From positions 186,001-250,000 of the forward strand of contig NZ_FOWV01000001.1 in the NCBI RefSeq assembly GCF_900115545.1: 64,000 bases of DNA. Reading direction: 5' to 3'. The translations under genes and the position numbers were made by a program. The notes below the pieces were generated by a model that saw nothing but the letters and a program-made list of their open reading frames with translations, searched no databases and had not been told where the DNA came from. Positions 8,292 through 46,094 of this stretch are shown piece by piece (the first letter of the stretch is position 1; the number at the start of each line of letters is the position of its first letter). This stretch comes from Ralstonia sp. NFACC01 (lineage in GTDB: Bacteria > Pseudomonadota > Gammaproteobacteria > Burkholderiales > Burkholderiaceae).

Positions 8292-9250
8292 GCTGTGGCG
8301 CTCAAAACGGGTTGCTTGGCATACGGATGGTTCTGGATCCAGTGCCGCGCGATGTCGATACGGCGGCAGATCCACACCTTGTCGTGCGATTGCACGTAGT
8401 CAAGGAAGCGCTGCAGCGCACGGAAGCGCGCCGGGCGGCCCAGCAGGCGGCAGTGCATGCCGATCGAGAGCATCTTCGGCTGCGCGAGCCCGCTGGGATC
8501 GCCTTCTTCGTACAGCACGTCGAATGCGTCCTTCAGGTACTGGTAGAAGTGGTCGGCCGTGTTGAAGCCTTGTGGGCTGGCAAAGCGCATGTCGTTGGTG
8601 TCGAGCGTGTACGGCACCACCAGGTGCGGCTTGTGCTCGCCGGACGAGGTTTCGACTTCGGTCCAGAAGGGCAGGTCGTCGCCGTAATAGTCGGCGTCGT
8701 AGGTAAAGCCGCCGTGCTCGACCACGAGGCGGCGCGTGTTGGGGCTGTCGCGGCCGGTGTACCAGCCCAGCGGTGCGTTGCCAGTCAGCTCGCGGATGAT
8801 CTCGACGCCGATGCGCATGTGCTCGCGCTCGGTCGCTTCGTCGACGTTCTGGTAATGGATCCAGCGCCAGCCGTGGCAGGCGATTTCGTGGCCCAGGTCA
8901 ACAAAGGCTTGCGTCACGTCCGGATGCCGTTGCAGGGCCATCGACACACCGAAGATCGTCAGCGGCAGGCCGCGCTTTTCAAACTCGCGCAGGATGCGCC
9001 ACACGCCCGCCCGCGAGCCGTATTCGTAGATGCCCTCCATGCTCATGTGGCGGTCGGGGTAGGCCGCAGCGCCAATGATTTCGGAGAGGAACTGCTCGGA
9101 GCCGGCGTCGCCGTGCAAGACGCAGTTTTCACCACCCTCTTCGTAGTTGAGGACGAACTGCAAGGCGACGCGCGCGCCGCCCGGCCAATTGGCGTTGGGC
9201 GAGTTCTTGCCGTAACCGATGAGATCGCGCGGATAGTTATTGTTTGTCAT
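8288..9250 (-). CDS. puuE: Allantoinase, polysaccharide-deacetylase fold
   Basis: 320 residues. Cofactor-independent allantoinase that hydrolyses allantoin to allantoate, of the PuuE/polysaccharide-deacetylase type, not the zinc amidohydrolase AllB. Recognisable segments are YPRDLIGYG, ALQFVLNYEEGGENCVLHGD, EIACHGWRWIHYQ and GWYTGRDSPNTRRLVVEHGG. The ATG at 9250 (MTNNNYPRD) matches where family homology begins. Another ATG at 9277 is possible and neither has a strong ribosome site. Coupled to uraD downstream; 111 bp separate it from the upstream deaminase gene on the same strand. Confidence 0.93.
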   Translation of the reverse strand: MTNNNYPRDLIGYGKNSPNANWPGGARVALQFVLNYEEGGENCVLHGDAGSEQFLSEIIGAAAYPDRHMSMEGIYEYGSRAGVWRILREFEKRGLPLTIFGVSMALQRHPDVTQAFVDLGHEIACHGWRWIHYQNVDEATEREHMRIGVEIIRELTGNAPLGWYTGRDSPNTRRLVVEHGGFTYDADYYGDDLPFWTEVETSSGEHKPHLVVPYTLDTNDMRFASPQGFNTADHFYQYLKDAFDVLYEEGDPSGLAQPKMLSIGMHCRLLGRPARFRALQRFLDYVQSHDKVWICRRIDIARHWIQNHPYAKQPVLSATA

Positions 9251-30517: not shown

Positions 30518-31114
30518 TCAACGGCTCAGCACCGAATACATCAGCGTTCCCGAGAAGGTGAGCAGTACCAGCGCTGCGCCGCGCAACAGTTTGGGCGTGT
30601 GAGACGCCCACGTGCGCCGTGCCGTGAGCAGCATGCCCAGATACGACCAGCCGATGGCAATGGGCACCAAGACAACCAGGAACGTGGCGATGGTCCGCCC
30701 AAAATTGGCTGCGGACTGGAATGCTGCGAGCGGAAAGAGCGTGCTTGCAAACAGCAGCGCCTTCGGGTTCATCAACGTGGTGACGAACATGTCGCGCAAG
30801 CTGACAGGATTCGCCGCAACGTGCTGCAGCGCCCCGCTTTGTCGCCAGATCTTTGCGGCCAAGTAGAGGATGTACACGGAATTCAGCAGCTTGACGACGG
30901 CTACCAGCCACGGCTGACTGACCGACAGCGCGGTCAGAAAGAATCCCCACAGCGAGATTGAAGTGACATAGCCCAGCGCCTCAGCAGCAATGAGCGGGCT
31001 CGTCCGCCGCACGCCCACCTTGAGGCCGGACGAGAGCAGCAGCGTGTTCGTCGGCCCCGGCATGATCAGCACCAGGGACGCGTACAGCGCCATCGTAAGC
31101 AACGAGTCTTGCAT
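30518..31114 (-). CDS. LysE/RhtB family amino-acid exporter
   Basis: 198-residue inner-membrane protein with about six helices. The N-terminal LysE-family motif LVLIMPGPTNTLLLSSGL, then a LGYVTSISLWGFFL helix, RDMFVTTLMNPKALLFA in the middle, and a hydrophobic C-terminus. Members export amino acids or homoserine lactones; substrate is not readable. It starts 6 bp after the LOG-protein gene stop, so the three genes TetR-LOG-LysE form one probable transcript. Confidence 0.88.
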   Translation of the reverse strand: MQDSLLTMALYASLVLIMPGPTNTLLLSSGLKVGVRRTSPLIAAEALGYVTSISLWGFFLTALSVSQPWLVAVVKLLNSVYILYLAAKIWRQSGALQHVAANPVSLRDMFVTTLMNPKALLFASTLFPLAAFQSAANFGRTIATFLVVLVPIAIGWSYLGMLLTARRTWASHTPKLLRGAALVLLTFSGTLMYSVLSR

Positions 31115-31120
31115 GTCGCC

Positions 31121-31705
31121 CTACGTGCGCTCGCGACGTTCCGACCACTTGTCGACGGTCTCGCGCGGCGCACGCGCCAGCATGTCGATCAACGCGGCGG
31201 GGTCGTCGCTCACGTGCAGCAGGTCAGCGTGGTGGCGCTTGAGGAAGCCTTCCTGCACGGCGTGGTCGATGAAGGCGAGGAGCTTGTCGTAGAAGCCCGC
31301 CACGTTCAGCAGGCCGATCGGCTTGTTGTGATAGCCGAGCTGCAGCCACGTGAAGGTCTCGAAGAGTTCTTCGTACGTCCCGACGCCGCCGGGCATGGCG
31401 ATGAAGGCATCTGCACGGTCAGCCATCATTTGCTTGCGCTGGTGCATGCTGTCGACGATGTGCAGCTCGGTCAGGTCTTTATGCCCGACCTCCTTGCGCA
31501 CGAGCGATTTCGGGATGATGCCGATCACCGGGGTGCCGCCTTGCAGCACGGCGTCGGCCACTATGCCCATCAAGCCAACGTTGCCGCCGCCGTAGACGAG
31601 CGTCAGGTCGCGCTTGACCATCTCGTTGCCCAGCGCGATGGCGCTGGCTTTATATTCCGGGCGCTCGCCCGGGCTGGAACCGCAATAGACGCAGATCGAT
31701 TTCAT
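31121..31705 (-). CDS. LOG family protein (cytokinin riboside 5'-monophosphate phosphoribohydrolase-like)
   Basis: 194 residues. Shows the LOG signatures PGGVGTYEELFE and the MHQRKQMM substrate motif, plus an N-terminal SICVYCGSSPG and YGGGNVGLMG nucleotide-fold motif. Family members split nucleoside monophosphates such as AMP or cytokinin riboside phosphates into base and ribose-5-phosphate. Non-plant-associated bacteria also carry them, so a cytokinin role is not implied. The ATG overlaps the TetR stop by 4 bases. Confidence 0.9.
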   Translation of the reverse strand: MKSICVYCGSSPGERPEYKASAIALGNEMVKRDLTLVYGGGNVGLMGIVADAVLQGGTPVIGIIPKSLVRKEVGHKDLTELHIVDSMHQRKQMMADRADAFIAMPGGVGTYEELFETFTWLQLGYHNKPIGLLNVAGFYDKLLAFIDHAVQEGFLKRHHADLLHVSDDPAALIDMLARAPRETVDKWSERRERT

Positions 31706-32412
31706 TGAGCAGTAGTGTTGTTGCTGGGCTTGCCGATGGGCGGATCGTTGCTGCGGCTCACCGCCAGCAAATCAAACGCCCGCCGCGGCTTGCCGCGCAG
31801 GTAAGGCGCGAGGATCGACAGGATGTGGTAGCTCGCGCCGTGCAGGTGGTCACGGATCGCGTTCTGGTCGTTGTACTGGCGTGGGTGCTGCACAAACTGG
31901 AACGACAGCCAGTAAGTGGCGATCACCACGATGTTGGTGCAGATGACGTCGACTTGCTCGGCCGTGGCTTCCATCTCGCCGTCTTCGATGAACTGGTGGC
32001 AGATGTCCATAGCGAAGTGGCGCTTTTGCTCGACGATGCGCTTGAAGTTCAATTCAAGCATGCGGTTGCGCGCGAGCAGATCGTTGATGTCGCGGTACAG
32101 GAAGCGGTAGTTCCACAGGAACTCCGACATGTACTGCAGGTAGCCCCACGTCTCGTCGAGTGTGGCCTTGTGGTCGTCCGGCAGCTTCAGGCGACGCGCG
32201 ATCTCCTGCTCGAACTGCACGAAGATCGAGTTGATGATGTCGTCCTTGTTGCGGAAGTGGTAGTACAGGTTGCCCGGGCTGATCTCCAGCTCTTCGGCGA
32301 TCGTCGTGGTGGTGACGTTGGGCTCGCCCAGTTCGTTGAACAGGCGCAGCGACACTTCGAGGATGCGATCGCGCGTGCGGCGCGGGCCGGTGGAATGCTG
32401 CTTGGTTTCCAT
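31702..32412 (-). CDS. TetR/AcrR-family transcriptional regulator
   Basis: 236 residues. The N-terminal HTH (about residues 12-58; TRDRILEVSLRLFNELG, TTIAEELEISPGNLYYHFRNKDDII) is a clear TetR domain. The C-terminal region (LWNYRFLYRDINDLLARN) is of the type often found in regulators tied to fatty-acid or lipid functions, with ligand unknown. Translationally coupled to the LOG gene (ATGA overlap). A gene-free 136 bp separates it from dgkA, upstream on the same strand. Confidence 0.9.
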   Translation of the reverse strand: METKQHSTGPRRTRDRILEVSLRLFNELGEPNVTTTTIAEELEISPGNLYYHFRNKDDIINSIFVQFEQEIARRLKLPDDHKATLDETWGYLQYMSEFLWNYRFLYRDINDLLARNRMLELNFKRIVEQKRHFAMDICHQFIEDGEMEATAEQVDVICTNIVVIATYWLSFQFVQHPRQYNDQNAIRDHLHGASYHILSILAPYLRGKPRRAFDLLAVSRSNDPPIGKPSNNTTAQ

Positions 32413-32548
32413 TGACTGCCAAGGCCGGTGGCCCTGTCTCCGTGGCGTATTGGTGCCCGGATTATAAGAGATCGTGCTTGTGCAACGACCCCCACACGCT
32501 GCGGGGCAGACATTGCCAAACGTTGTCGCCGGCTTTTCGCTGGTGTTC

Positions 32549-33013
32549 CTAATGCAACAGCGACGCCACCCACGGCCAGGCGATCGCTACCCACGTTCCC
32601 ACGCACAGCAGCAGAGCCAGCATGACGGCCGCGCTGCCGAAATCCTTGGCACGCTTGGAAAGCCCGTGCTGCTCGAGCGAGATGCGGTCGACCGCCGCTT
32701 CCACGCTCGAATTGAGCAGCTCGACGATGAGCACCAGGACCAGCGTGCCCAGCATCAGAATGCGCTCGACCACCGTGGCGGGAATGACGAACGCGCACGG
32801 TAGCAGGATCGCGCACAGCGTCAATTCCTGGCGGAACGCGCTTTCCTCGTCGATGGCGAAGCGGATGCCGCTGATGGAGTTCTTGAGCGCAAACCACGCC
32901 CGCGTGATGCCGCGATTGCCTTTATGCGGGTTGTCTGCTGGCGAGTACGCCCCAGCTGCAGGCGGTGCGGGCGGATTTTCCAGTCGCTGATCTGGCGGGG
33001 TGGTGGGCTTCAT
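32549..33013 (-). CDS. dgkA: Diacylglycerol kinase
   Basis: 154-residue inner-membrane kinase phosphorylating diacylglycerol to phosphatidate. The core matches DgkA: GITRAWFALKNSISGIRFA amphipathic helix, EESAFRQEL, and the active-site helix ELLNSSVEAAVDRIS, with three transmembrane helices. It is about 30 residues longer than the E. coli enzyme owing to a Pro-rich cytosolic N-terminus. It starts 12 bp after the glycosyltransferase gene, suggesting it handles diacylglycerol produced or used by the operon partners. Confidence 0.93.
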   Translation of the reverse strand: MKPTTPPDQRLENPPAPPAAGAYSPADNPHKGNRGITRAWFALKNSISGIRFAIDEESAFRQELTLCAILLPCAFVIPATVVERILMLGTLVLVLIVELLNSSVEAAVDRISLEQHGLSKRAKDFGSAAVMLALLLCVGTWVAIAWPWVASLLH

Positions 33014-33025
33014 GGAACGCAAGGC

Positions 33026-34156
33026 TCAGGCACCCGCGGCGGTGGACGGCTCGGCGGCCTTGGTGTTGTCGGCTTGTGCGGCCGGCATCGGGCGCAGGTG
33101 TGCGAGGAACTGTTCGGAGGCGGCGCGCCACGAGAACTTCTCGGCGTGCGCACGCGCCGTGACGCGGTCGATGCGCAGCGCTTCAAGGCAGGCTTCCCGC
33201 AGGTCTTCGCGCAACGCACCGGCCGGTGAATCGCCCAGCACGTCGATCGGGCCCGTCACCGGATACGCTGCCACCGGCAGGCCGCTGGCAAGTGCTTCCA
33301 GCAATACCAAGCCGAACGTGTCGGTGCGGCTCGGGAAGACGAACACATCGGCCGAGGCATACACCTTGGCCAGCTCCGGCTGCTTGAGCACGCCGAGGTA
33401 GCTGGCATTCGGGTACTTCGCTTTCAACCCGGCCAGCGCGGGGCCCTCACCGACCACCCACTTGGACCCCGGCAGATCCAGCTCCAGGAAAGCTTCGACG
33501 TTCTTCTCCACGGCCACACGGCCGACATACAGGAAGATCGGGTGCGCCGTGTTGAGCACGTTGCTGCGCTGGGCGGTGAAGATGTCCAGATCGACGCCGC
33601 GCGTCCACAGCACGCCGTTGGTGATGCCGTAGTCGGCAAGGTCTTTAAGCACCACGGGCGTCGGCGCCATCACGGCCTGCGCAGGGCTGTGGAACCAGCG
33701 CAGAAAGCGATACGTCCACGCCAGCGGAATGCCGAAGCGCGCCTGCACATACTCCGGAAAACGGGTGTGGTACGCAGTCGTATAGGGCAGCTTGTGGCGC
33801 AGCGCATAGGCGCGTGCGGCCAGGCCCAGCGGGCCTTCGGTGGCGATGTGCAGCGCCTGCGGGGCGAACTTCTCGATGCGCTCGCGCACGCGCTTGGCCG
33901 GCAGGATCGACAGGCGGATTTCCGGATACGTCGGGCACGGCACCGTCTTGAATTCCAGCGGCGTGATCATGTCGACAATGTGCCCCATGGCCTCCAGCTC
34001 GCGACGCGTCTGGGTGAGGGTACGGACGACGCCGTTGACCTGCGGTTCCCAGGCATCGGTGACGATCATGACTTTCACGGGCTCTCCTTGGGGGGTAGGT
34101 TGGGCGGCAATGGGCTGCACGAGGTCGATGCTGGTGTGGGTCATAGAGGCTTCCAT
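33026..34156 (-). CDS. GT1 family glycosyltransferase (candidate glycolipid glucosyltransferase, Agt-like)
   Basis: 376-residue GT-B glycosyltransferase. The N-terminal acceptor domain has VTDAWEPQVNGVVRTL, CPTYPEIRLSI, TEGPLGLAARAYALR and YTTAYHTRFPEYV. The C-terminal donor domain has LYVGRVAVEKNVEAFLEL and FPSRTDTFGLVLLEALASG with the catalytic EX7E-type Glu. This combination resembles Agt enzymes that glycosylate diacylglycerol and that in several bacteria sit beside the phospholipase PlcP. Older annotation would say alpha-mannosyltransferase. Its ATG overlaps the upstream gene stop (TGATG); an ATG at 34144 with GGAAG upstream is equally possible. Confidence 0.82.
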   Translation of the reverse strand: MEASMTHTSIDLVQPIAAQPTPQGEPVKVMIVTDAWEPQVNGVVRTLTQTRRELEAMGHIVDMITPLEFKTVPCPTYPEIRLSILPAKRVRERIEKFAPQALHIATEGPLGLAARAYALRHKLPYTTAYHTRFPEYVQARFGIPLAWTYRFLRWFHSPAQAVMAPTPVVLKDLADYGITNGVLWTRGVDLDIFTAQRSNVLNTAHPIFLYVGRVAVEKNVEAFLELDLPGSKWVVGEGPALAGLKAKYPNASYLGVLKQPELAKVYASADVFVFPSRTDTFGLVLLEALASGLPVAAYPVTGPIDVLGDSPAGALREDLREACLEALRIDRVTARAHAEKFSWRAASEQFLAHLRPMPAAQADNTKAAEPSTAAGA

Positions 34157-35214
34157 CAGGCGGCGGCCGCAGCGGCACGGCGTGCGCGGCGGGAGGTGCG
34201 CGGCGCATCGAGCAGATGCGTCCAGTAGACGATCTGCAGTTCGCCTTCCATGGTTTCGACCAGGGCAGAAAGGCTTTCCACCCAGTCGCCGTCGTTGCAG
34301 TAAAGCTGGCCGTCGATCTCGCGGATCTCGGCTTTGTGGATATGCCCGCAGACCACGCCGTCGCAGCCGCGGCGGCGCGCTTCATCCGTCATCACGCGCT
34401 CGAACGAATTGATGAAATTGACCGCGTTCTTGACCTGATGCTTGAGGTATTGCGACAAAGACCAGTACGGAAAACCAAGCCGCACGCGGATCCGGTTGAA
34501 GTGCCGGTTCATCGCCAGGATGAACGTGTAGAGCGAGTCGCCGACGTAGGCAAGCCAGCGCGCATGCTGCATCACGCCGTCGAACAGGTCGCCGTGCACG
34601 ACCCACAGGCGCTTGCCCGTGGCCGTCACGTGCACCGCGTCTTCAGCGACTTCGATATCGCCAAAGTTCAGCCCGTGGAACTGGCGCGCCATCTCGTCGT
34701 GGTTGCCCGGGATGAAGACGACGCGTGTGCCTTTGCGCGCGCGGCGCAGCACCTTCTGCACCACATCGTTGTGTGCCTGCGGCCAGTACCAGCCCTTGCG
34801 CAGTTGCCAGCCGTCAACGATGTCGCCCACCAGGTACAGCGTGTCCGATTCGTGGTGCTTGAGAAAGTCGAGCAGGTAGTCGGCCTGGCAGCCCGGCGTG
34901 CCGAGGTGGATGTCCGACAGCCAGATCGTGCGGTAGCGCTGGATTTTCTCGGCGGGCGGGTCAGCGTCGGTGTCGGCCGATCGATCGGGCGCCAACGTCG
35001 ACGCCGGCGTGGCGACCGGTGCTTCGTGTTCGCGCACATCGCCCCGACCTGCCGGTACAGCCGAGCCCAGCGCACCCGCGGCGGCGAGTCCGGCGGCCAT
35101 TTGCATCAGCGGCGGTGGAGCGTTCCAGTCGGAACCGGTGAGGGGAGCAGCGCGAAAGCGTTGCGCGAGGCGGCGGAGGAAACCAGGGCGCGATGGCAGA
35201 TTTGGCAGGACCAT
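34156..35214 (-). CDS. LpxH/PlcP-like metallophosphoesterase (candidate phospholipase C)
   Basis: 352 residues. About 90 low-complexity N-terminal residues precede a calcineurin-like domain with full metal-site motifs: SDIHLG (100-105), GDIVDGW (130-136), GNHDE (170-174), HGD (207-209) and GHIHKAE (290-296). Automatic annotation would call it UDP-2,3-diacylglucosamine diphosphatase. The LGTPGCQA, WYWPQAHND and RLGFPYWSLSQYLK segments fit the PlcP group, Mn-dependent phospholipases that cleave phospholipids to diacylglycerol under phosphate limitation. An ATG at 35259 is possible, but the Pho-box-like element lies only 10 bp from it, so 35214 is preferred. Confidence 0.8.
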   Translation of the reverse strand: MVLPNLPSRPGFLRRLAQRFRAAPLTGSDWNAPPPLMQMAAGLAAAGALGSAVPAGRGDVREHEAPVATPASTLAPDRSADTDADPPAEKIQRYRTIWLSDIHLGTPGCQADYLLDFLKHHESDTLYLVGDIVDGWQLRKGWYWPQAHNDVVQKVLRRARKGTRVVFIPGNHDEMARQFHGLNFGDIEVAEDAVHVTATGKRLWVVHGDLFDGVMQHARWLAYVGDSLYTFILAMNRHFNRIRVRLGFPYWSLSQYLKHQVKNAVNFINSFERVMTDEARRRGCDGVVCGHIHKAEIREIDGQLYCNDGDWVESLSALVETMEGELQIVYWTHLLDAPRTSRRARRAAAAAA

Positions 35215-35268
35215 GTCGGCAACAGAGGCTGCGTTGGACGGATTTCGCCATCGCTGCATGAAAAAGCC

Positions 35269-35297
35269 GTGTCAGAAACATGACCGTCACATGACGT
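35269..35297 (-). promoter_or_regulatory. Candidate Pho box (PhoB site), three 7-bp repeats at 11-bp period
   Basis: Read on the minus strand: ACGTCAT-GTGA-CGGTCAT-GTTT-CTGACAC. The consensus is CTGTCAT-N4-CTGTCAT; the repeats match 5, 6 and 5 of 7 positions with exact 11-bp spacing. It sits directly upstream of the PlcP-like/glycosyltransferase/dgkA unit. I could not score it statistically. Confidence 0.6.
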
Positions 35298-35350
35298 GAT
35301 TGCCGAGAAAGGGGCAGGCGTGCGCCCAAGACCTGCGCCGGGCGCGCATT

Positions 35351-36367
35351 TCAGGCTGATGGGATCGCGGAGATGCCTTCAATGTGTGCGAGTTCCGTCA
35401 GCACAGCGTCGCGCACGCGTGCGTCGCATAGCAGCGACACATGGCCGATGCCCGCGAACGAGATGTGACGCGCGCCTTGCAGGCAGGAGGCACCAGCCGG
35501 GCCGACGATGGAGTCGTGCCACGAAAAAATCGACGTGATGCGCGCTCGCACGGCTGGCGTTTCGGACGCGGCAAGCTGGCGCAGCCAAGGGCTCGCCCAG
35601 GCCATCTGGCGCACGTTGTGACCGCGTCCCGTCCGCGCCATTGCCGTGCCCCGATGCGGCGTGCCGAGTGTGATGACGTGGGCAACAAGGCAGGGCTCCG
35701 ATTGGCGCAGCAGAGCTCGGGCGGCGAGCCCACCCATGCTGTGGCAGAGCAGGACGGGCGCACGGCCATGCATGCGCGTCAGGCGCGCGACGGCGGCCGC
35801 AATGTCGCGGGCGTAGTCGTCGATATCGCCCAGCAGCGGCATGAGATCGATGGCATCGGTCGGGTGTCCGGCGGCGGCCAAATGGCGCTGCATCGGCAGC
35901 CACACGGCGCGATTGCACCCGTAGCCGTGAATCATCAGCACAGGCACGCGCTTGCCCTCATCGGCGGGCGCATCGAACGTGGCATGCGCCTGGAAGGGTT
36001 GCAGCACGTTGAACATCCAAGCGACGGATACGCACTCGCGGAACCAGCATGCGATAAAGCCGGCGATGCCGACGCGCTGTTCGCACGGCACGGGCATGCG
36101 GTCCCACATGGGGTCGTCCGGTACCGCCGTGCCCAGGCTCTTCAGCGACACCAGGAACGCCCACCCGATCGAAACGAGATACCCGAGCACCAACGCCACG
36201 CCCGCGAGCCCACTCGCCGCCGGCCAACTCCATCTGCCCCACCGATGTGCCGCCCAGCCAACCGCTAGCGTCGCCGCATATTGCAGCACCACGGCAATGC
36301 GGCGCGCTGTGGCCGCGGTCAGGGAGGCGAAGGGAACAGGGGAGGAGGGAAGATCGGCGCGCGTCAT
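35351..36367 (-). CDS. Alpha/beta hydrolase (lipase/esterase-like) with N-terminal membrane segments
   Basis: 338 residues. Two hydrophobic helices near residues 20-75 (IAVVLQYAATLAVGWAAH; GLAGVALVLGYLVSIGWAFL) anchor it to the inner membrane. They are followed by an alpha/beta-hydrolase domain: oxyanion region PVLMIHGYGCN, nucleophile elbow LCHSMGGLAAR (Ser about residue 209), TLGTPHRGT and GIGHVSLL with the catalytic His. The substrate is unknown; the lid-like arrangement and GTPHRGT resemble triacylglycerol lipase/PGAP1-like esterases. It lies 30 bp after the RDD gene and is probably in the same transcript. Confidence 0.82.
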   Translation of the reverse strand: MTRADLPSSPVPFASLTAATARRIAVVLQYAATLAVGWAAHRWGRWSWPAASGLAGVALVLGYLVSIGWAFLVSLKSLGTAVPDDPMWDRMPVPCEQRVGIAGFIACWFRECVSVAWMFNVLQPFQAHATFDAPADEGKRVPVLMIHGYGCNRAVWLPMQRHLAAAGHPTDAIDLMPLLGDIDDYARDIAAAVARLTRMHGRAPVLLCHSMGGLAARALLRQSEPCLVAHVITLGTPHRGTAMARTGRGHNVRQMAWASPWLRQLAASETPAVRARITSIFSWHDSIVGPAGASCLQGARHISFAGIGHVSLLCDARVRDAVLTELAHIEGISAIPSA

Positions 36368-36397
36368 GGTGGAGGTCGCCGCCGAGCGTGCAGCCGA

Positions 36398-36922
36398 TCA
36401 GTCGCGCACCAGCCGGGTGCCGGCCAGGCGATCGTGCAGGAATTGGCGCTGCGGATCGAGCCACGCCAGCGCGCCCCAGGCCAGCAGGCACGCCAAAGCG
36501 ACTCCCGCGCCGGCCCAACGGGACGCCCCGCTCAGGTGGATCACGCCGACTGCCGCGACCACCCATACCCACGCCAGCACATAGCGCGCAACGGCGCGGC
36601 CCAACGAAATACGTGATCCATCGGCGTTGACTACGCGCATGCGCCAGGTCTGCATCGCTAGCGTCTGGCCGCGTTTGCGCCAAAACCAGACGAAGTACAG
36701 ACCAAGTGCCAGAAAACCCCACACCTGCAGCCCTACATCGCCTGTGCGCGCCAGCGGTGGCACGATCAGGCGCAGCAGCAGAAAGACAGCCGTGGCGCCA
36801 AACATCACGCCAAACAGCAGCAGGCCCTCGTAGAGCATCGCAGCAAGACGGCGGCGCAGCGTGGGTGCAGCACGCGGATCAGGCGCCGCAGCGGGGGAAG
36901 GAGAGGAAACGGAGGTGGCCAT
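36398..36922 (-). CDS. RDD family membrane protein
   Basis: 174 residues, three or four transmembrane helices. RDD family pattern: Arg near the N-terminus (PTLRRRLAAMLYEGLLLFGVMFGAT) and the Asp-rich C-terminal motif FLHDRLAGTRLV; GQTLAMQTWRMRVVNADG lies between helices. Function is unknown for the family (some members are linked to Na+/H+ transport or stress). The conserved Asp of the first helix seems replaced by Glu (MLYEG). Confidence 0.82.
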   Translation of the reverse strand: MATSVSSPSPAAAPDPRAAPTLRRRLAAMLYEGLLLFGVMFGATAVFLLLRLIVPPLARTGDVGLQVWGFLALGLYFVWFWRKRGQTLAMQTWRMRVVNADGSRISLGRAVARYVLAWVWVVAAVGVIHLSGASRWAGAGVALACLLAWGALAWLDPQRQFLHDRLAGTRLVRD

Positions 36923-38874: not shown

Positions 38875-39233
38875 ACAACGGCGGGTGCGAATCCTGTGAG
38901 GCAGCCGCGCGAAAATTCACATACTCAAGATGTGATGATCACGCCGCGTGGCGTCAACGGCCTTGGCCGTGAAAAATGTTGCGATGCTAGCAAAAATGCG
39001 GCTCTACGGACAGCCCGACTGCCGGGCGGGCCGCCAAGAGCTGGGAATCGCGCCGGTGCTGGACCGCCATGCGGCATTGCAGTATTATCCCCGGTTCACA
39101 ACATCTGTGGTTTGTCTCATCTGGCCGCCCATCAGGCGGACCATCCATGCAGACGCGCACCGCTCAAATCCGCGCCACAAGCCCGGTAGAGAGCATCCAA
39201 ACAATTTTTTGCCGAAAATTGCAAAGGACTGAC
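38875..39233. other. Gene-free 359-bp region between sigma factor and ilvB
   Basis: No protein or RNA gene is recognised. TATTAT at 39081-39086 region is a possible -10 for ilvB, without a convincing -35. A 7-bp perfect inverted repeat CAATTTT-N6-AAAATTG (39202-39221) ends just before the ilvB ribosome site AAAGGA (39223-39228) and could affect initiation. No terminator-type attenuator or Ile/Val/Leu-rich leader ORF like that of leuA is apparent here. Confidence 0.4.
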
Positions 39234-40991
39234 ATGAATATGCCAAGCGCGGAATTTTCCCACGCCAATAGCGGTTCATCTGCCGACATGATGGGGGCTG
39301 ACATCCTCGTCAATGCGCTCGCGGCAGAGGGCGTCGAGTTCGTCTGGGGTTACCCCGGCGGCGCGGTGCTCTATATCTACGACGCGTTCTACAAGCAAAA
39401 CAAGATCGAACACATCCTGGTGCGCCATGAACAGGCGGCAGTCCATGCGGCTGACGGCTATGCGCGTGCCACGGGCAAGGTCGGTGTCGCCCTGGTGACC
39501 TCCGGCCCGGGCGTGACCAATGCCGTGACCGGCATCGCCACCGCTTACCTGGATTCGATCCCGATGGTGATCATCACTGGCAACGTGCCAACGCACGCCA
39601 TCGGCCAGGATGCCTTCCAGGAGTGCGACACCGTCGGCATTACCCGCCCGATCGTCAAGCACAACTTCCTGGTCAAGGACGTGCGCAATCTCGCCTCGAC
39701 CATCAAGAAGGCGTTCTACATCGCCGCAACGGGCCGTCCGGGCCCGGTAGTGGTGGATATCCCCAAGGATGTCTCGCGTGAACTTTGCAAGTACGAGTAT
39801 CCGAAGACCATCGAGATGCGCTCGTACAGCCCGGTCAACAAGGGCCATTCGGGCCAGATCCGCAAGGCGGTAAGTCTGCTGCTGCAGGCCGAGCGTCCGT
39901 ACATCTATTCGGGTGGCGGCGTTGTACTTGCCGAGGCCAGCGAAGAACTGCGCCAACTGGCTGCGCTGACGGGTTATCCCGTGACGAACACGCTGATGGG
40001 TCTGGGCGCTTTCCCGGGTACCAGCAAGCAGTTCGTAGGCATGCTGGGCATGCACGGCACGTACGAAGCCAATATGGCAATGCAGAACTGTGACGTTCTG
40101 ATTGCCATCGGCGCGCGTTTTGATGATCGCGTGATTGGCAGCCCGGCACACTTCTCGTCGCAGCCGCGCAAGATCATCCACATCGACATCGATCCGTCGT
40201 CCATCTCCAAGCGCGTGAAGGTCGACATCCCCATCGTCGGCAACGTCAAGGACGTGCTGCAAGAAATGATCGCCCAGATCCAATCTGGCGAAGCCAAGCC
40301 CAACAAGGCGGCGCTGGCCAAGTGGTGGGAACAGATCGAACAGTGGCGCAGCGTCGATTGCCTGAAGTACGACCGCACGTCCGAGATCATCAAGCCCCAG
40401 TACGTGGTCGAGAAAATCTGGGAACTGACCAATGGTGACGCCTTCGTCTGCTCCGACGTCGGTCAGCACCAGATGTGGGCCGCGCAGTTCTACAAGTTCA
40501 ACGAGCCGCGCCGCTGGATCAACTCCGGCGGGCTCGGCACGATGGGCGTGGGCTTGCCGTACGCAATGGGCATCAAGAAGGCATTCCCGGACAAGGAGGT
40601 CGTCACCATCACCGGTGAGGGCTCGATCCAGATGTGCATCCAGGAGCTGTCGACGTGCCTGCAGTACGACACGCCGGTGAAAATCTGCTCGCTCAACAAC
40701 GGCTATCTGGGCATGGTGCGCCAGTGGCAGGAAATCGAGTACGACAACCGTTACTCGCATTCCTACATGCAAGCGCTGCCTGACTTCGTGAAGCTGGCCG
40801 AATCGTATGGCCACGTTGGCATGCGCATCGAGAAGACGTCCGACGTCGAACCCGCGTTGCGCGAAGCCTTCCGACTCAAGGACCGCACCGTGTTCCTCGA
40901 CTTCCAGACCGACCCGACAGAAAACGTCTGGCCGATGGTCCAGGCAGGCAAGGGTATTTCTGAAATGCTGCTCGGCGCGGAGGACCTCTAA
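39234..40991 (+). CDS. ilvB: Acetolactate synthase large subunit
   Basis: 585 residues. ThDP/FAD-dependent condensation of two pyruvates (or pyruvate with 2-oxobutyrate), the first common step of Val/Leu/Ile synthesis. Visible motifs are GYPGGAVLYIYDA, RHEQAAVHAADGYARATG (catalytic Glu), TSGPGVTNAVTG, and the ThDP/Mg motif starting GEGS with NNGYLGMVRQWQ. The frame is open upstream to 39069, but MNMPSAEFS at 39234 has AAAGGA in position. Its TAA overlaps the ilvH ATG (TAATG). Confidence 0.96.
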   Translation: MNMPSAEFSHANSGSSADMMGADILVNALAAEGVEFVWGYPGGAVLYIYDAFYKQNKIEHILVRHEQAAVHAADGYARATGKVGVALVTSGPGVTNAVTGIATAYLDSIPMVIITGNVPTHAIGQDAFQECDTVGITRPIVKHNFLVKDVRNLASTIKKAFYIAATGRPGPVVVDIPKDVSRELCKYEYPKTIEMRSYSPVNKGHSGQIRKAVSLLLQAERPYIYSGGGVVLAEASEELRQLAALTGYPVTNTLMGLGAFPGTSKQFVGMLGMHGTYEANMAMQNCDVLIAIGARFDDRVIGSPAHFSSQPRKIIHIDIDPSSISKRVKVDIPIVGNVKDVLQEMIAQIQSGEAKPNKAALAKWWEQIEQWRSVDCLKYDRTSEIIKPQYVVEKIWELTNGDAFVCSDVGQHQMWAAQFYKFNEPRRWINSGGLGTMGVGLPYAMGIKKAFPDKEVVTITGEGSIQMCIQELSTCLQYDTPVKICSLNNGYLGMVRQWQEIEYDNRYSHSYMQALPDFVKLAESYGHVGMRIEKTSDVEPALREAFRLKDRTVFLDFQTDPTENVWPMVQAGKGISEMLLGAEDL

Positions 40992-41482
40992 TGCGCCACA
41001 TCATTTCCGTCCTGCTGGAAAACGAACCGGGCGCGTTGTCACGCGTGGTCGGCCTGTTCTCTGCACGCGGCTATAACATCGAGACGCTGACGGTCGCCCC
41101 GACTGAAGACGCTTCGCTGTCGCGCATGACGATCGTCACGACCGGCTCTGACGACATCATCGAGCAGATCACCAAGCACCTGAACCGCCTGGTGGAAGTC
41201 GTCAAGGTCGTCGACCTGACCGAGGGTGCGCACATCGAGCGCGAGCTGATGCTCGTGAAGGTGCGCGCAGTCGGCAAGGAACGCGAGGAGATGAAGCGTA
41301 CCGCGGACATCTTCCGCGGCCGCATCATCGACGTGACCGAGAAGACCTACACGATCGAGCTGACCGGCAACGGCAGCAAGCTCGACGCGTTTCTCGATGC
41401 CATCGATCGCACTGCCATTCTTGAGACCGTCCGTACGGGCGGCTCGGGCATCGGCCGCGGCGAGCGCATTCTGAAGGTTTGA
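40991..41482 (+). CDS. ilvH: Acetolactate synthase small (regulatory) subunit
   Basis: 163 residues. The N-terminal ACT domain (RHIISVLLENEPGALSRVVGLFSARGYNIETLTV) binds valine for feedback inhibition and activates the large subunit; the C-terminal ALS small-subunit domain follows (RELMLVKVRA, FRGRIIDVTEKTYTIELTG). Full family length. Translationally coupled to ilvB by stop/start overlap; ilvC follows after 55 bp. Confidence 0.96.
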   Translation: MRHIISVLLENEPGALSRVVGLFSARGYNIETLTVAPTEDASLSRMTIVTTGSDDIIEQITKHLNRLVEVVKVVDLTEGAHIERELMLVKVRAVGKEREEMKRTADIFRGRIIDVTEKTYTIELTGNGSKLDAFLDAIDRTAILETVRTGGSGIGRGERILKV

Positions 41483-41528
41483 ACCGGCGCGTGCGTGCTG
41501 CCGGACTCCATCGATATTTGAAAATTAG

Positions 41529-42554
<1,026 letters not shown>

Positions 42555-42574
42555 TCGGTTGCATCCTGTGCAAG

Positions 42575-42603
42575 AAAGCCGGCCTTCGGGCTGGCTTTTT
42601 TTT
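42575..42603 (+). terminator. Rho-independent terminator of ilvBHC
   Basis: AAAGCCGGCC and GGGCTGGCTTT pair around a TTCG tetraloop and run into an eight-T tract. Confidence 0.92.
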
Positions 42604-42701
42604 ATGCTGATTCCAGGGCGCCAAACATTGTTTCAAGTGCTGGCGCGGCTCCGTGTCGGCTAGAATGCCGCATTTCCTTCAAGACGCTGTCGAGGTCTGA
42701 T

Positions 42702-43349
42702 TTGAACAACACGTATCCGCATCCCATCATTGCCCGCGAGGGTTGGCCGTACCTGGGCGGGATTTTCATCGTCACGCTCATCGTGCAGGCCGCCGCCGGC
42801 TTCGGCTGGGCTTGGCCGTTCTGGGTGCTGACGCTGTTTGTGCTGCAGTTTTTTCGAGATCCGGCCCGCGTCGTGCCAACGCAGGCCAATGCGATTCTGT
42901 CGCCGGCTGATGGTCGCATCGTCGCCGTCGAGCAGGTGCGTGACCCGTATGCCGATCGCGACTCGCTGAAGATCAGCGTGTTCATGAATGTGTTCAACGT
43001 GCACTCGAACCGTGCGCCGGTCGACGGCACTGTGCAGCAGGTGCAGTACTTCCCGGGCAAGTTCGTCAATGCGGACCTGGACAAGGCGTCGCTCGAAAAC
43101 GAGCGCAACGCCATTGTGCTACGCCGCGCTGATGGCCAGCTCGTCACTTCGGTGCAGGTGGCCGGATTGATCGCGCGGCGCATCCTTTGCTATACCAAGG
43201 CAGGCGAAGCGCTCACGCGTGGCCAGCGTTATGGCTTCATCCGCTTTGGCTCGCGCGTTGACGTGTACCTGCCGCTGACGGCGCGCCCGCGCGTGACCAT
43301 CGGCGAGAAAGTATCCGCCACGCTTACGGTGCTTGCAGAGCTGGACTGA
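42702..43349 (+). CDS. psd: Phosphatidylserine decarboxylase proenzyme
   Basis: 215 residues, the short (Psd-B/archaeal-like) type. Pyruvoyl enzyme converting phosphatidylserine to phosphatidylethanolamine. An N-terminal membrane segment (about 18-50) precedes [14 protein letters not shown] and [16 protein letters not shown]. The self-cleavage site is FGSRVD with Gly183-Ser184, where Ser becomes the pyruvoyl group. It starts with TTG at 42702, supported by GAGG upstream and by family length; no in-frame ATG fits. TAGAATGC at 42661 is a likely -10. pssA follows after 13 bp. Confidence 0.94.
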
Positions 43350-43362
43350 TCCGGAGGCCGCC

Positions 43363-44235
43363 ATGCCCGCGTTCAACCGACGCAAGAAGCGTTTTACCGC
43401 CGGCAACGTGACGCACTTGCGTCCGCTGCGGCACAATCAGCCGCGTTCGGATGACGACGATCTTGAGATCGTGCGTCCGCGCCGTCGCGGCATCTATCTG
43501 TTGCCCAACGCGTTCACGACCGCGGCGCTCTTCGCCGGCTTCTTCGCCATCGTGCAGGCGATGAACCTGAACTTTGAGACGGCTGCCATCGCCATCTTCG
43601 CGGCGATGGTGCTCGACGGCATGGACGGCCGTGTCGCTCGCATCACCAATACGCAAAGCGCGTTCGGCGAGCAATACGATTCGCTGTCGGACATGGTGTC
43701 ATTTGGCGTTGCGCCGGCATTGGTCATGTACGAATGGATTCTGCGCGACCTGGGCAAGTGGGGTTGGCTTGCGGCGTTCGTGTATTGCGCTGGCGCTGCG
43801 CTGCGCCTCGCGCGCTTCAATACGAACATCGGGTCGGTCGACAAGCGCTTCTTCCAAGGCATGCCGAGCCCGGCAGCCGCAGCGCTCATCGCGGGTTTTG
43901 TCTGGCTGGCGATCGACAACAAGCTGCCGGTCAAAGAACTGTGGATGCCGTGGGTGGCCTTCGGGCTGACGCTATATGCGGGGCTCTCGATGGTGTCGAA
44001 CGCGCCGTTCTACAGCGGCAAGGCGCTCGACGTTCGTCACCGCGTGCCATTTGGCGTGATGGTGCTCGTCCTGGTGCTGTTCGTTGTGATATCGAGCGAT
44101 CCGCCAGTCGCGCTTTTCGGCCTGTTTGTTGGTTACGCGGTATCGGGCTATCTGCTCTGGGGCTGGCGTGCTCTGCATGGGCAACAAGGGAGCCCGCGCT
44201 TGCCGAAACAGGCGTCCGGCGACGCACATGAGTGA
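43363..44235 (+). CDS. pssA: CDP-diacylglycerol--serine O-phosphatidyltransferase
   Basis: 290 residues. Makes phosphatidylserine from CDP-diacylglycerol and serine, supplying Psd encoded just upstream. The CDP-alcohol phosphotransferase motif D-G-x2-A-R-x8-G-x3-D-x3-D is present as LDGMDGRVARITNTQSAFGEQYDSLSD (about residues 84-110). About eight transmembrane helices; the N-terminal 35 residues are basic and cytosolic. GGAGG precedes the ATG at 43363. Confidence 0.94.
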   Translation: MPAFNRRKKRFTAGNVTHLRPLRHNQPRSDDDDLEIVRPRRRGIYLLPNAFTTAALFAGFFAIVQAMNLNFETAAIAIFAAMVLDGMDGRVARITNTQSAFGEQYDSLSDMVSFGVAPALVMYEWILRDLGKWGWLAAFVYCAGAALRLARFNTNIGSVDKRFFQGMPSPAAAALIAGFVWLAIDNKLPVKELWMPWVAFGLTLYAGLSMVSNAPFYSGKALDVRHRVPFGVMVLVLVLFVVISSDPPVALFGLFVGYAVSGYLLWGWRALHGQQGSPRLPKQASGDAHE

Positions 44236-44259
44236 CCGATGCGCTGCACCAATGTGCGC

Positions 44260-44288
44260 TTGCGCCGATTTTTGAATTCGTCTATAGT
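44260..44288 (+). promoter_or_regulatory. Promoter of the leuA leader transcript
   Basis: TTGCGC (44260-44265), 17-bp spacer, TATAGT (44283-44288). Transcription would begin about 44295, almost exactly at the leader-peptide ATG (44296), implying a leaderless message for the leader ORF. Confidence 0.6.
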
Positions 44289-44295
44289 CATTCGC

Positions 44296-44379
44296 ATGCT
44301 TTCGCGCCCGATTTCCATTCTGATTACGCTAGTCTCGATTGATGGCCTACTAGGTCGTCAGGTCGGGACACGCGCATAG
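44296..44379 (+). CDS. leuA leader peptide (branched-chain amino-acid attenuation)
   Basis: A 27-codon ORF, too short for routine gene calling, begins MLSRPISILITLVSIDGLLG. Eleven of its codons are Leu, Ile or Val, including three CTA Leu codons that are rare in this GC-rich genome. It precedes a terminator-type hairpin and then leuA. Ribosome stalling at these codons when charged tRNA-Leu is scarce would be expected to favour an antiterminator. No Shine-Dalgarno is visible, but the likely transcription start is at the ATG. Its role as an attenuator is inference from layout and codon content. Confidence 0.75.
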   Translation: MLSRPISILITLVSIDGLLGRQVGTRA

Positions 44380-44437
44380 GAAATCGCAAGACAAGGCAAG
44401 CAGAAACCGCCAAGTTTTCGCGAACCAGAATCCCCAG

Positions 44438-44473
44438 CGCCCCGGCCTGCAACCATGCACGCCGGGGCGTTTT
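44438..44473 (+). terminator. Attenuator hairpin in leuA leader
   Basis: Perfect 9-bp arms CGCCCCGGC (44438-44446) and GCCGGGGCG (44461-44469) with a 14-nt loop are followed by TTTT. It lies 59 nt after the leader-peptide stop and 80 nt before leuA, the position of a classical attenuator. The U-run is short. Confidence 0.75.
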
Positions 44474-44552
44474 GCATTCTGCGCCGCAAAAAAACATTCG
44501 AGACACCCACTAAGACCGACGCCAAAAACGTCACCCCCACCAAGGAGCCGCC

Positions 44553-46094
44553 ATGAGCGACAAACTCATCATTTTCGATACCACCTTGCGCGACGGCGAA
44601 CAGTCCCCTGGGGCGTCGATGACCAAGGAAGAGAAGATCCGCATTGCCAAGCAGCTTGAGCGGCTCAAGGTGGACGTGATCGAAGCCGGCTTCGCGGCCA
44701 GCTCCAATGGTGACTTCGAGGCGATCCGCGCGATTGCGCAGTCGGTCAAGGATTCGCGCATTTGCTCGCTGGCCCGTGCGAACGATCGCGATATCTCCCG
44801 CGCTGCGGAGGCGCTCAAGCCGGCCGGCCAGTTCCGTATCCATACGTTCATCGCCACGTCGGCGTTGCACATGGAGAAGAAGCTGCGCATGTCGCCGGAT
44901 CAGGTGTACGAGCAGGCGCGCCTAGCGGTGCGCTTCGCGCGCCAATTCACCGACGACATCGAATTCTCGCCGGAAGATGGTAGCCGCTCCGACATGGATT
45001 TCCTGTGCCGCGTCTTGGAAGGCGTGATCGCCGAGGGTGCCACGACCATCAACCTGCCAGATACGGTGGGCTACGCGGTGCCGGAAGGTTATGCCGCGCT
45101 GATCCGCTCGGTGCGCGAGCGCATCCCGAATTCCGACAAGGCGGTCTGGTCGGTGCACTGCCATAACGACCTGGGCATGGCGGTCGCCAACTCCCTGGCC
45201 GCTGTCAAACTGGGCGGGGCACGCCAGATCGAATGCACGATCAACGGCCTGGGTGAGCGTGCCGGCAACACCAGCCTCGAAGAGGTGGTGATGGCAGTGA
45301 AGACGCGTCGCGACTACTTCAATCTCGACGTCGGTGTTGATACCACGCAGATCGTGCCGGCGTCCAAGCTGGTTTCGCAGATCACCGGTTTCGTCGTGCA
45401 GCCGAACAAGGCGGTCGTGGGCGCCAACGCGTTTGCGCACGCTTCGGGCATCCACCAGGATGGCGTGCTCAAGGCACGCGACACATACGAAATCATGCGT
45501 GCCGAAGACGTGGGCTGGACAGCCAACAAGATCGTCCTGGGCAAACTCTCGGGTCGCAATGCGTTCAAGCAGCGTCTGCAGGAGCTGGGCATTGAGCTCG
45601 ATTCAGAAGCCGAGCTGAATGCGGCCTTCACCCGTTTCAAGGAACTGGCTGATCAGAAGGCTGAGATCTTTGACGAGGACATCGTCGCCATCGTTTCGAA
45701 CGAAGCACAGCACAGCGAGGGCGAGCATTTCCGGTTCGTGTCGCTGGCGCAACGTTCGGAAACTGGTGAGCGTCCGCACGCGCGCATCGTCTTCGTTGCA
45801 GACGGCAAGGAAGTGACGGGCGAAGCGGAGGGCAATGGCCCGGTTGACGCCACGCTCAATGCGATTGAGAGCCAGGTCGCCAGCGGCGCCGAGCAGTTGC
45901 TGTATTCGGTCAACGCCATCACGACGGGCACGCAGGCGCAGGGCGAAGTGACGGTGCGGCTGTCCAAGTCGGGCCGTATCGTCAACGGCGTAGGTACCGA
46001 TCCGGACATCGTCGCGGCTTCGGCCAAGGCTTACCTTGCCGCGCTGAACAAGCTACAGGACAAGAGCAGCGAAAAACTCAACCCGCAGATCTGA
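44553..46094 (+). CDS. leuA: 2-isopropylmalate synthase
   Basis: 513 residues. Condenses acetyl-CoA with 2-oxoisovalerate, the committed step of leucine synthesis. TIM-barrel motifs are [14 protein letters not shown] at the N-terminus and [15 protein letters not shown] (metal His residues), with the [18 protein letters not shown] signature. The C-terminal leucine-binding LeuA dimer domain (about 390-505) gives feedback inhibition. AAGGAG lies 8 bases before the ATG. Preceded by the leader peptide and attenuator described here; inverted arms AACCCGC/GCGGGTT straddle the stop codon (46080-46103). Confidence 0.96.

What the first reader, a model, noticed from the sequence alone, without database searches (positions are those of the whole stretch)
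32549..35297. Candidate Pho-controlled membrane-lipid remodelling operon: PlcP-like phosphoesterase, GT1 glycosyltransferase, DgkA
Seen: three tightly linked genes (1-bp overlap, then 12 bp) with a three-repeat element of 11-bp period matching the Pho box directly upstream. Known: in some alpha- and other proteobacteria PlcP cleaves phospholipids to diacylglycerol under phosphate limitation and the neighbouring Agt glycosylates it, saving phosphorus. Inferred: here DgkA is added as a third gene, able to return diacylglycerol to phosphatidate. Standard annotation (UDP-2,3-diacylglucosamine diphosphatase plus mannosyltransferase) would hide this. psd and pssA, which make the phosphatidylethanolamine substrate, are 7 kb away.
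Basis: partly seen in the sequence, partly recalled or inferred. Interest (0 to 1): 0.78.

Follow-up and report, generated by a model that had tools for sequence, protein, structure and literature searches.

The report
Phosphate-starvation lipid-swap operon with DgkA
Three neighbouring genes behind a phosphate-starvation switch probably let this bacterium break down phosphorus-containing membrane lipids and rebuild them as sugar lipids, a known strategy, here joined by a third enzyme that can turn the intermediate back into phospholipid.

Summary
A PlcP-type phosphoesterase, an Agt-type GT4 glycosyltransferase and DgkA lie head to tail at 35214-32549 (-) behind an 11-bp-period Pho box with four repeats (35297-35254), not three; a -10-like block follows at the spacing of the genome's own pstS promoter. 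The genome has PhoB, PhoR and a separate LpxH. In a tree of 87 domains the protein groups with S. meliloti and P. aeruginosa PlcP, apart from 10 LpxH (100/100). The glycosyltransferase has the published Agt motifs and catalytic dyad. So this is the PlcP-Agt pathway, known in alphaproteobacteria and Pseudomonas, in a betaproteobacterial family.

The less familiar part is dgkA: it follows plcP-agt in 84 of 94 plcP-bearing genomes sampled from the family and is the only DgkA in 65 of those 84. It is linked to plcP in three other families, once in another order, but most plcP genomes outside the family lack the linkage. I found no paper in the held library describing it. Induction, lipids and DgkA's role are untested. 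Likely true starts: plcP 35214, agt GTG 34078. New variant of a known kind.

The parts
35254..35297 (-). Pho box: four direct repeats of 11-bp period (35297-35287, 35286-35276, 35275-35265, 35264-35254)
   Evidence: Best 3- and 4-repeat chain of the window with a matrix trained on pstS promoters; 0 of 60 Markov windows as high; ranks first against the control stretches of its own locus in 16 of 16 genus loci (loci short, smallest possible p 0.07-0.09); coordinates
35242..35247 (-). -10-like hexamer CGAAAT, 10 bp after the fourth repeat, as TAAAGT is after the last repeat of the genome's pstS promoter
   Evidence: block TGGCGAAAT invariant in 16 of 16 genus loci. Only 3 of 6 letters agree with TATAAT (recalled consensus)
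34156..35214 (-). plcP: metallophosphoesterase of the PlcP family, 352 aa (ORF opens at ATG 35259)
34084..34089 (-). Shine-Dalgarno-like AAGGAG of agt
   Evidence: present in the 9 of 10 genus loci that the pattern found
33026..34078 (-). agt: GT4 diacylglycerol glycosyltransferase, 350 aa from GTG (ORF opens at ATG 34156)
32549..33013 (-). dgkA: prokaryotic diacylglycerol kinase, the only one found in the genome

Best explanation
A PhoB-controlled membrane-lipid remodelling operon, plcP-agt-dgkA. When phosphate is scarce PhoB binds the 11-bp repeats and drives one transcript. PlcP cleaves the head group off phospholipids (probably phosphatidylethanolamine above all) to diacylglycerol (DAG) and a phosphoalcohol, which frees phosphorus. 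Agt puts a sugar (glucose and/or glucuronic acid) on DAG and makes a phosphorus-free glycolipid that replaces phospholipid. DgkA, from the same transcript, phosphorylates the DAG that Agt does not take to phosphatidate, so that DAG does not pile up and lipids can be shifted back or into other phospholipids. Shown here by sequence: genes, order, Pho-type promoter, presence of PhoB and PhoR, conservation. Inferred from characterised relatives: enzyme activities and induction. Inferred from linkage and enzyme chemistry only: the task of DgkA.
For: Pho box and promoter spacing; PhoB 345.8 bits over cut-off 296.2, PhoR 447.6 over 334.2; PlcP clade apart from LpxH, 51.5% identity to the S. meliloti and 49.1% to the P. 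aeruginosa homologue; Agt motifs and dyad; agt directly after plcP in 10 of 10 genus and 10 of 11 other family loci fetched; dgkA next in line in 84 of 94 plcP genomes of the family; dgkA-plcP linkage in three further families; both genes without promoter-like site or terminator between them in the scan.
Against: No expression or lipid data. Seven of the ten unlinked family genomes do have dgkA elsewhere or on another contig besides G381 at a contig end; 19 of 84 linked genomes have a second DgkA; six family genomes have DgkA without plcP. Outside the family only 3 of 59 phylum genomes and 1 of 11 order genomes with both genes have them adjacent. The Pho score failed in L064 (same family) and in 4 of 14 order loci. 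The proposed -10 is a weak match to the usual consensus and the sigma-70 scan found no site.
Confidence: 0.8

Rival explanations
1. The lipid-swap unit is only plcP-agt; dgkA is a housekeeping gene that happens to sit behind it, with regulation of its own, recycling DAG from other sources.
For: In most plcP genomes outside the family the two are apart; G375 and G396 keep plcP-agt in the usual slot without dgkA there; 19 of 84 linked genomes have a second DgkA.
Against: Only 12 bp between agt and dgkA; linkage in 84 of 94 family genomes, sole DgkA in 65; linkage again in three other families, once with dgkA in front; a chance expectation of about 0.05 in 68 genomes against 4 seen (my rough arithmetic).
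Confidence: 0.22
2. The phosphoesterase is a second LpxH acting in lipid A synthesis, as routine annotation says.
For: Distant similarity to LpxH (8.1e-11 on the NCBIfam model, 35.3-41.5 bits) and shared metal ligands.
Against: Far below the LpxH cut-offs (134 and 190.35); true LpxH elsewhere in the genome; 10 of 10 LpxH split off with 100/100; 20-29% identity to LpxH against about 50% to PlcP.
Confidence: 0.03
3. The glycosyltransferase uses another acceptor than DAG (for instance a mannosyltransferase of cell-envelope sugars).
For: GT4 is a large family with many acceptors, and no NCBIfam model reaches its cut-off.
Against: GRVAVEKN, FPSRTDTFG and His104 match the DAG-using group defined in PMC8231724; the nearest GT4 paralogue of the genome has Glu in place of that Asp (FPSVTETFG); the gene follows plcP.
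Confidence: 0.06

Closest known systems
PlcP-Agt1 (PA3219-PA3218) glycolipid pathway of Pseudomonas aeruginosa (PMC8528852, passages)
   Same: plcP followed by agt behind a Pho box; proteins about 49% identical to the homologues in L257
   Different: No dgkA beside them in L257; P. aeruginosa has a second, unlinked Agt2 (passages)
PlcP-Agt of Methylosinus trichosporium, roseobacters, SAR11, Sinorhizobium and Agrobacterium (PMC9239053 section 6; PMC4796936 section 13; PMC3972451 passages)
   Same: Phospholipase C plus GT4 glycosyltransferase for phosphorus-free glycolipids at low phosphate
   Different: The sections and passages read name no diacylglycerol kinase among the neighbours
Pho-dependent lipid-renovation proteins of Pseudomonas putida BIRD-1 (PMC5082522, passages)
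   Different: No linkage of the genes is mentioned in the passages; the list of proteins absent in the mutant names PlcP but not DagK; whether that DagK is of the DgkA family was not seen
LpxH
   Same: Same metallophosphoesterase superfamily and metal ligands
   Different: Other clade, other gene in this genome

Membership tests
PlcP (intracellular phospholipase C of lipid remodelling) | Groups with characterised PlcP and apart from LpxH | tested here: met
   (clade with S. meliloti 95/94, joined by Pseudomonas 82/82; LpxH apart 100/100). The two references are identified by neighbours, partly from recall. The tree tool warned of long branches and of unlike letter make-up in five LpxH rows
PlcP (intracellular phospholipase C of lipid remodelling) | Metal ligands of the metallophosphoesterase site | tested here: met
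   D101, H103, D131, N171, H207, H291, H293 shared with E. coli LpxH and both PlcP references
PlcP (intracellular phospholipase C of lipid remodelling) | Hydrolyses PE/PC/PG to DAG | not testable with these tools
   Needs an enzyme assay
Agt (GT4 diacylglycerol glycosyltransferase) | Motifs GRVAxEKN and FPSxTDTFG with the His-Asp dyad | tested here: met
   GRVAVEKN at 186, FPSRTDTFG at 248, His104; definition from PMC8231724 passages
Agt (GT4 diacylglycerol glycosyltransferase) | Glycosylates DAG | not testable with these tools
   Needs an enzyme assay or lipidomics
DgkA | DAGK_prokar domain with the conserved core | tested here: met
   106.4 bits over 22.3; VELLNSSVEAAVDRIS and RAKD core shared with E. 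coli DgkA
Pho regulon | Pho box in front, PhoB/PhoR in the genome | tested here: met
Pho regulon | PhoB-dependent induction at low phosphate | not testable with these tools
   Needs RNA measurements with and without phoB
LpxH | Score above the equivalog cut-off; LpxH clade | tested here: not met
   35.7 bits against 190.35; outside the LpxH clade

The most novel reading that the evidence does not exclude
In this betaproteobacterial family DgkA is a dedicated, PhoB-controlled part of lipid remodelling: Agt and DgkA compete for one DAG pool made by PlcP and so set the ratio of glycolipid to phospholipid, and PlcP plus DgkA can swap phosphatidylethanolamine for other phospholipids; the main supply of DgkA here is PlcP, not the osmolyte or LPS routes known (by recall) from E. 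coli.
Probability: 0.35. Interest if true: 0.6.

Novelty: new variant of a known kind. Interest (0 to 1): 0.43.

Why it matters
It predicts that a large betaproteobacterial family replaces phospholipids by sugar lipids when phosphate runs short, which alters phosphorus demand and membrane charge and, in P. aeruginosa, drug protection (title and abstract of PMC8528852). Routine annotation hides it: in the plasmid collection 24 of 32 records with a PlcP-like match call it UDP-2,3-diacylglucosamine diphosphatase, the other 8 list no gene there. The linkage with dgkA gives a testable idea of how bacteria keep the intermediate DAG in check during lipid turnover.

Tried and rejected
LpxH reading: rejected. 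First tree: several rows had been cut from a wrong reading frame (seen); withdrawn and rebuilt. First pass over the pstS promoters: the 12 loci with pstS on the minus strand had not been turned round; redone, which alone is used.

Two-repeat Pho score: not significant. The top pair at 9244 (+) seems to overlap the start of a gene on the other strand and 25547 (-) lies inside an ORF; both taken as chance. The promoter and terminator scan found no promoter-like site in 31000-36500, and two terminator-like sites, fewer than in shuffles and both on the other strand.

In one search my script counted L064 (genome G036, same family) among 'order' loci; the numbers given here put it back: family without the genus 10 of 11, order 10 of 14.

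The named-genome scan returned 80 Pseudomonas or Pseudomonadaceae loci but not P. aeruginosa; the P. aeruginosa and S. meliloti references came from the plasmid collection. That they are PA3219-PA3218 and the studied S. meliloti plcP rests on neighbours (cyaB; quorum-sensing genes) recalled from memory. A search for the window's organism among plasmids gave no close match; it looks like Ralstonia from gene content, which is recall.

Not pursued: fold prediction (the sequence evidence decides the families); the nearness of psd and pssA.

Full report
WHAT IS THERE. On the minus strand at 35297-32549 the window holds, in order, a Pho-box-like element, a metallophosphoesterase gene, a GT4 glycosyltransferase gene and a DgkA gene. 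The element is four repeats of 11-bp period: ACGTCATGTGA CGGTCATGTTT CTGACACGGCT TTTTCATGCAG (35297-35254). I built a repeat matrix from pstS promoters of the own genome and relatives (30 loci; 28 gave a site over my threshold, 24 distinct), which owes nothing to plcP. Over both strands of the 64 kb the best 3-repeat and 4-repeat chains lie here; 0 of 60 first-order Markov windows reached either score. A 2-repeat chain is not significant (25 of 60 as high), so the evidence lies in the run of repeats.

PROMOTER ANATOMY. In the own pstS promoter 10 bp separate the last Pho repeat (CTGTCAT) from TAAAGT; here 10 bp separate TTTTCAT from CGAAAT. The block TGGCGAAAT is invariant in 16 of 16 genus loci, while the stretch in front of the box varies. 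With the 3-repeat chain the upstream stretch outranks all control stretches of its own locus in 16 of 16 genus loci (short loci, so p cannot fall below 0.067, in one 0.091) and in 10 loci of other genera of the family (p 0.022 each); an eleventh family locus, L064, failed. The 2- or 3-repeat score reached p 0.05 in 10 of 14 order loci, 34 of 43 phylum loci and 4 of 4 named Pseudomonas loci (with L064 moved to its family). The regulator is present: genes over the curated cut-offs for PstS, PstC, PstA, PhoU, PhoB and PhoR lie in this order at G000:C16.

START SITES. ATG 35259 is part of the fourth repeat and is missing in 6 of 16 genus members; ATG 35214 is present in 16 of 16. For agt, GTG 34078 stands 5 bp behind AAGGAG, seen in the 9 of 10 genus loci that my pattern found. 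The '1-bp overlap' is then a 77-bp gap. dgkA at ATG 33013 begins 12 bp after agt.

PLCP, NOT LPXH. The protein scores 35.7 bits on the LpxH model (cut-off 190.35) and the genome has another gene with 242.9. It is 51.5% identical to the S. meliloti and 49.1% to the P. aeruginosa homologue, 20-29% to ten LpxH. In a maximum-likelihood tree of 87 catalytic domains the ten LpxH, E. coli's among them, split off with 100/100; the window protein lies in a clade with S. meliloti PlcP (95/94) that joins the Pseudomonas clade at 82/82. The metal ligands are intact.

AGT. PMC8231724 (passages) describes a DAG-using GT4 group by GRVAxEKN and FPSxTDTFG and by a His104-Asp256 dyad in which Asp replaces the usual Glu; changing that Asp to Glu cost over 90% of activity. 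The window protein has GRVAVEKN, FPSRTDTFG and His104. The nearest paralogue of the genome, 39% identical over 274 residues, has FPSVTETFG. The P. aeruginosa homologue departs slightly (GRLATEKN, FPSLTDTYG) and is 49% identical. agt follows plcP in 10 of 10 genus, 10 of 11 other family, 11 of 16 order and 22 of 40 phylum loci fetched.

DGKA AS THIRD GENE. The own genome has one DgkA, this one. Of 16 genus genomes 15 have it beside plcP; in G014 the two are on different contigs. Of 120 family genomes 94 have a plcP match, and 84 of these have dgkA downstream on the same strand, 1.1-2.4 kb away, room for one gene in all but the largest case; it is the only DgkA in 65 of the 84. Two of the 84 have an incomplete plcP (G353 broken, G416 a fragment near a contig start). 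Of the 10 unlinked, G381 has its contig end about 300 bp after agt, G383 and G408 have no DgkA, and G375 and G396 have plcP-agt in the usual slot without dgkA. Six genomes have DgkA without plcP. In G033 the slot is empty of all three genes; in G021, which has neither plcP nor DgkA, another gene stands there.

OUTSIDE THE FAMILY. Of the 299 phylum genomes, 96 outside the family have a real PlcP match and 59 of these a DgkA. In 3 of the 59 the two are adjacent: G124 and G148 (one family, order dgkA-plcP-agt) and G175 (another family, plcP-GT4-dgkA, the GT4 only 29% like Agt). One search did not print the dgkA position of 8 of the 59; five of those 8 were looked at and had none near plcP, three (G182, G309, G327) were not. 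In the order sample 1 of 11 with both genes (G058) is linked. By rough arithmetic chance would give about 0.05 in these 68 different genomes. On the tree the linked rows outside the family need three changes, at least two forced by well-supported branches; but 43 of 500 shuffles of that label did as well. So the linkage has arisen more than once, yet most plcP genomes outside the family do without it.

HOW IT WORKS, MOST LIKELY. PlcP turns phospholipid into DAG and phosphoalcohol, Agt turns DAG into glycolipid, DgkA returns the rest to phosphatidate. The first two steps are established in relatives (PMC8528852 passages; PMC9239053 section 6; PMC4796936 section 13; PMC3972451 passages). The DgkA step is inferred from linkage and chemistry. 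PMC5082522 (passages) names DagK with PlcP as PHO-dependent in P. putida, but its list of proteins lost in the mutant names PlcP and not DagK.

WHAT IS KNOWN. The pathway is known. PMC4796936 section 13 describes six gene arrangements around plcP in marine bacteria and names no diacylglycerol kinase. Ten searches of the held library (listings and abstract starts seen) showed me no paper on a plcP-agt-dgkA linkage or on PlcP-Agt remodelling in this family; the one paper with both 'dgkA' and 'plcP' (PMC13086504, passages) lists dgkA in a gene table. The library holds only open-licence papers; a B. cenocepacia phosphorus-stress proteome, seen only as a reference, was not read.

VERDICT. A well-supported member of the PlcP-Agt kind with a conserved additional gene: new variant of a known kind, moderate interest.

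Noticed in passing
L155 and L261 (genomes G124, G148): In another family of the phylum dgkA stands in front of plcP-agt on the same strand, with Pho-like repeats before plcP.
   Followed up: partly
L274/L287 (genome G021) and L275 (genome G033): Absence of the unit from its usual slot: in G033 the flanking genes stand side by side; in G021 a gene that reads like a dihydrolipoyl dehydrogenase fills the slot.
   Followed up: partly
L257 (Pseudomonas aeruginosa plasmid pHOU1-1): plcP-agt with chromosome-like neighbours (cyaB, azoR3) lies on a record called a plasmid; three P. aeruginosa plasmid records hold plcP.
   Followed up: no
L285 (Mitsuaria sp. 7 plasmid): A betaproteobacterial plasmid copy of plcP sits beside polyphosphate kinase and a Ppx/GppA phosphatase instead of agt.
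   Followed up: no
35351-36367 (-): An alpha/beta hydrolase gene directly upstream of the Pho box is found in the genus and in L043 and L044 but not in the other eight family loci of that table; function unknown.
   Followed up: no
G000:C11:76724-80153 (L263): Two further GT4 genes facing each other, the nearest paralogues of agt, with Glu instead of the Agt Asp in the first.
   Followed up: partly
39069-46094 (+): psd and pssA lie between genes that read like ilvB/ilvH/ilvC and leuA (the last names partly recalled).
   Followed up: no
L283 (genome G353): plcP is broken into pieces while agt and dgkA behind it are open.
   Followed up: no
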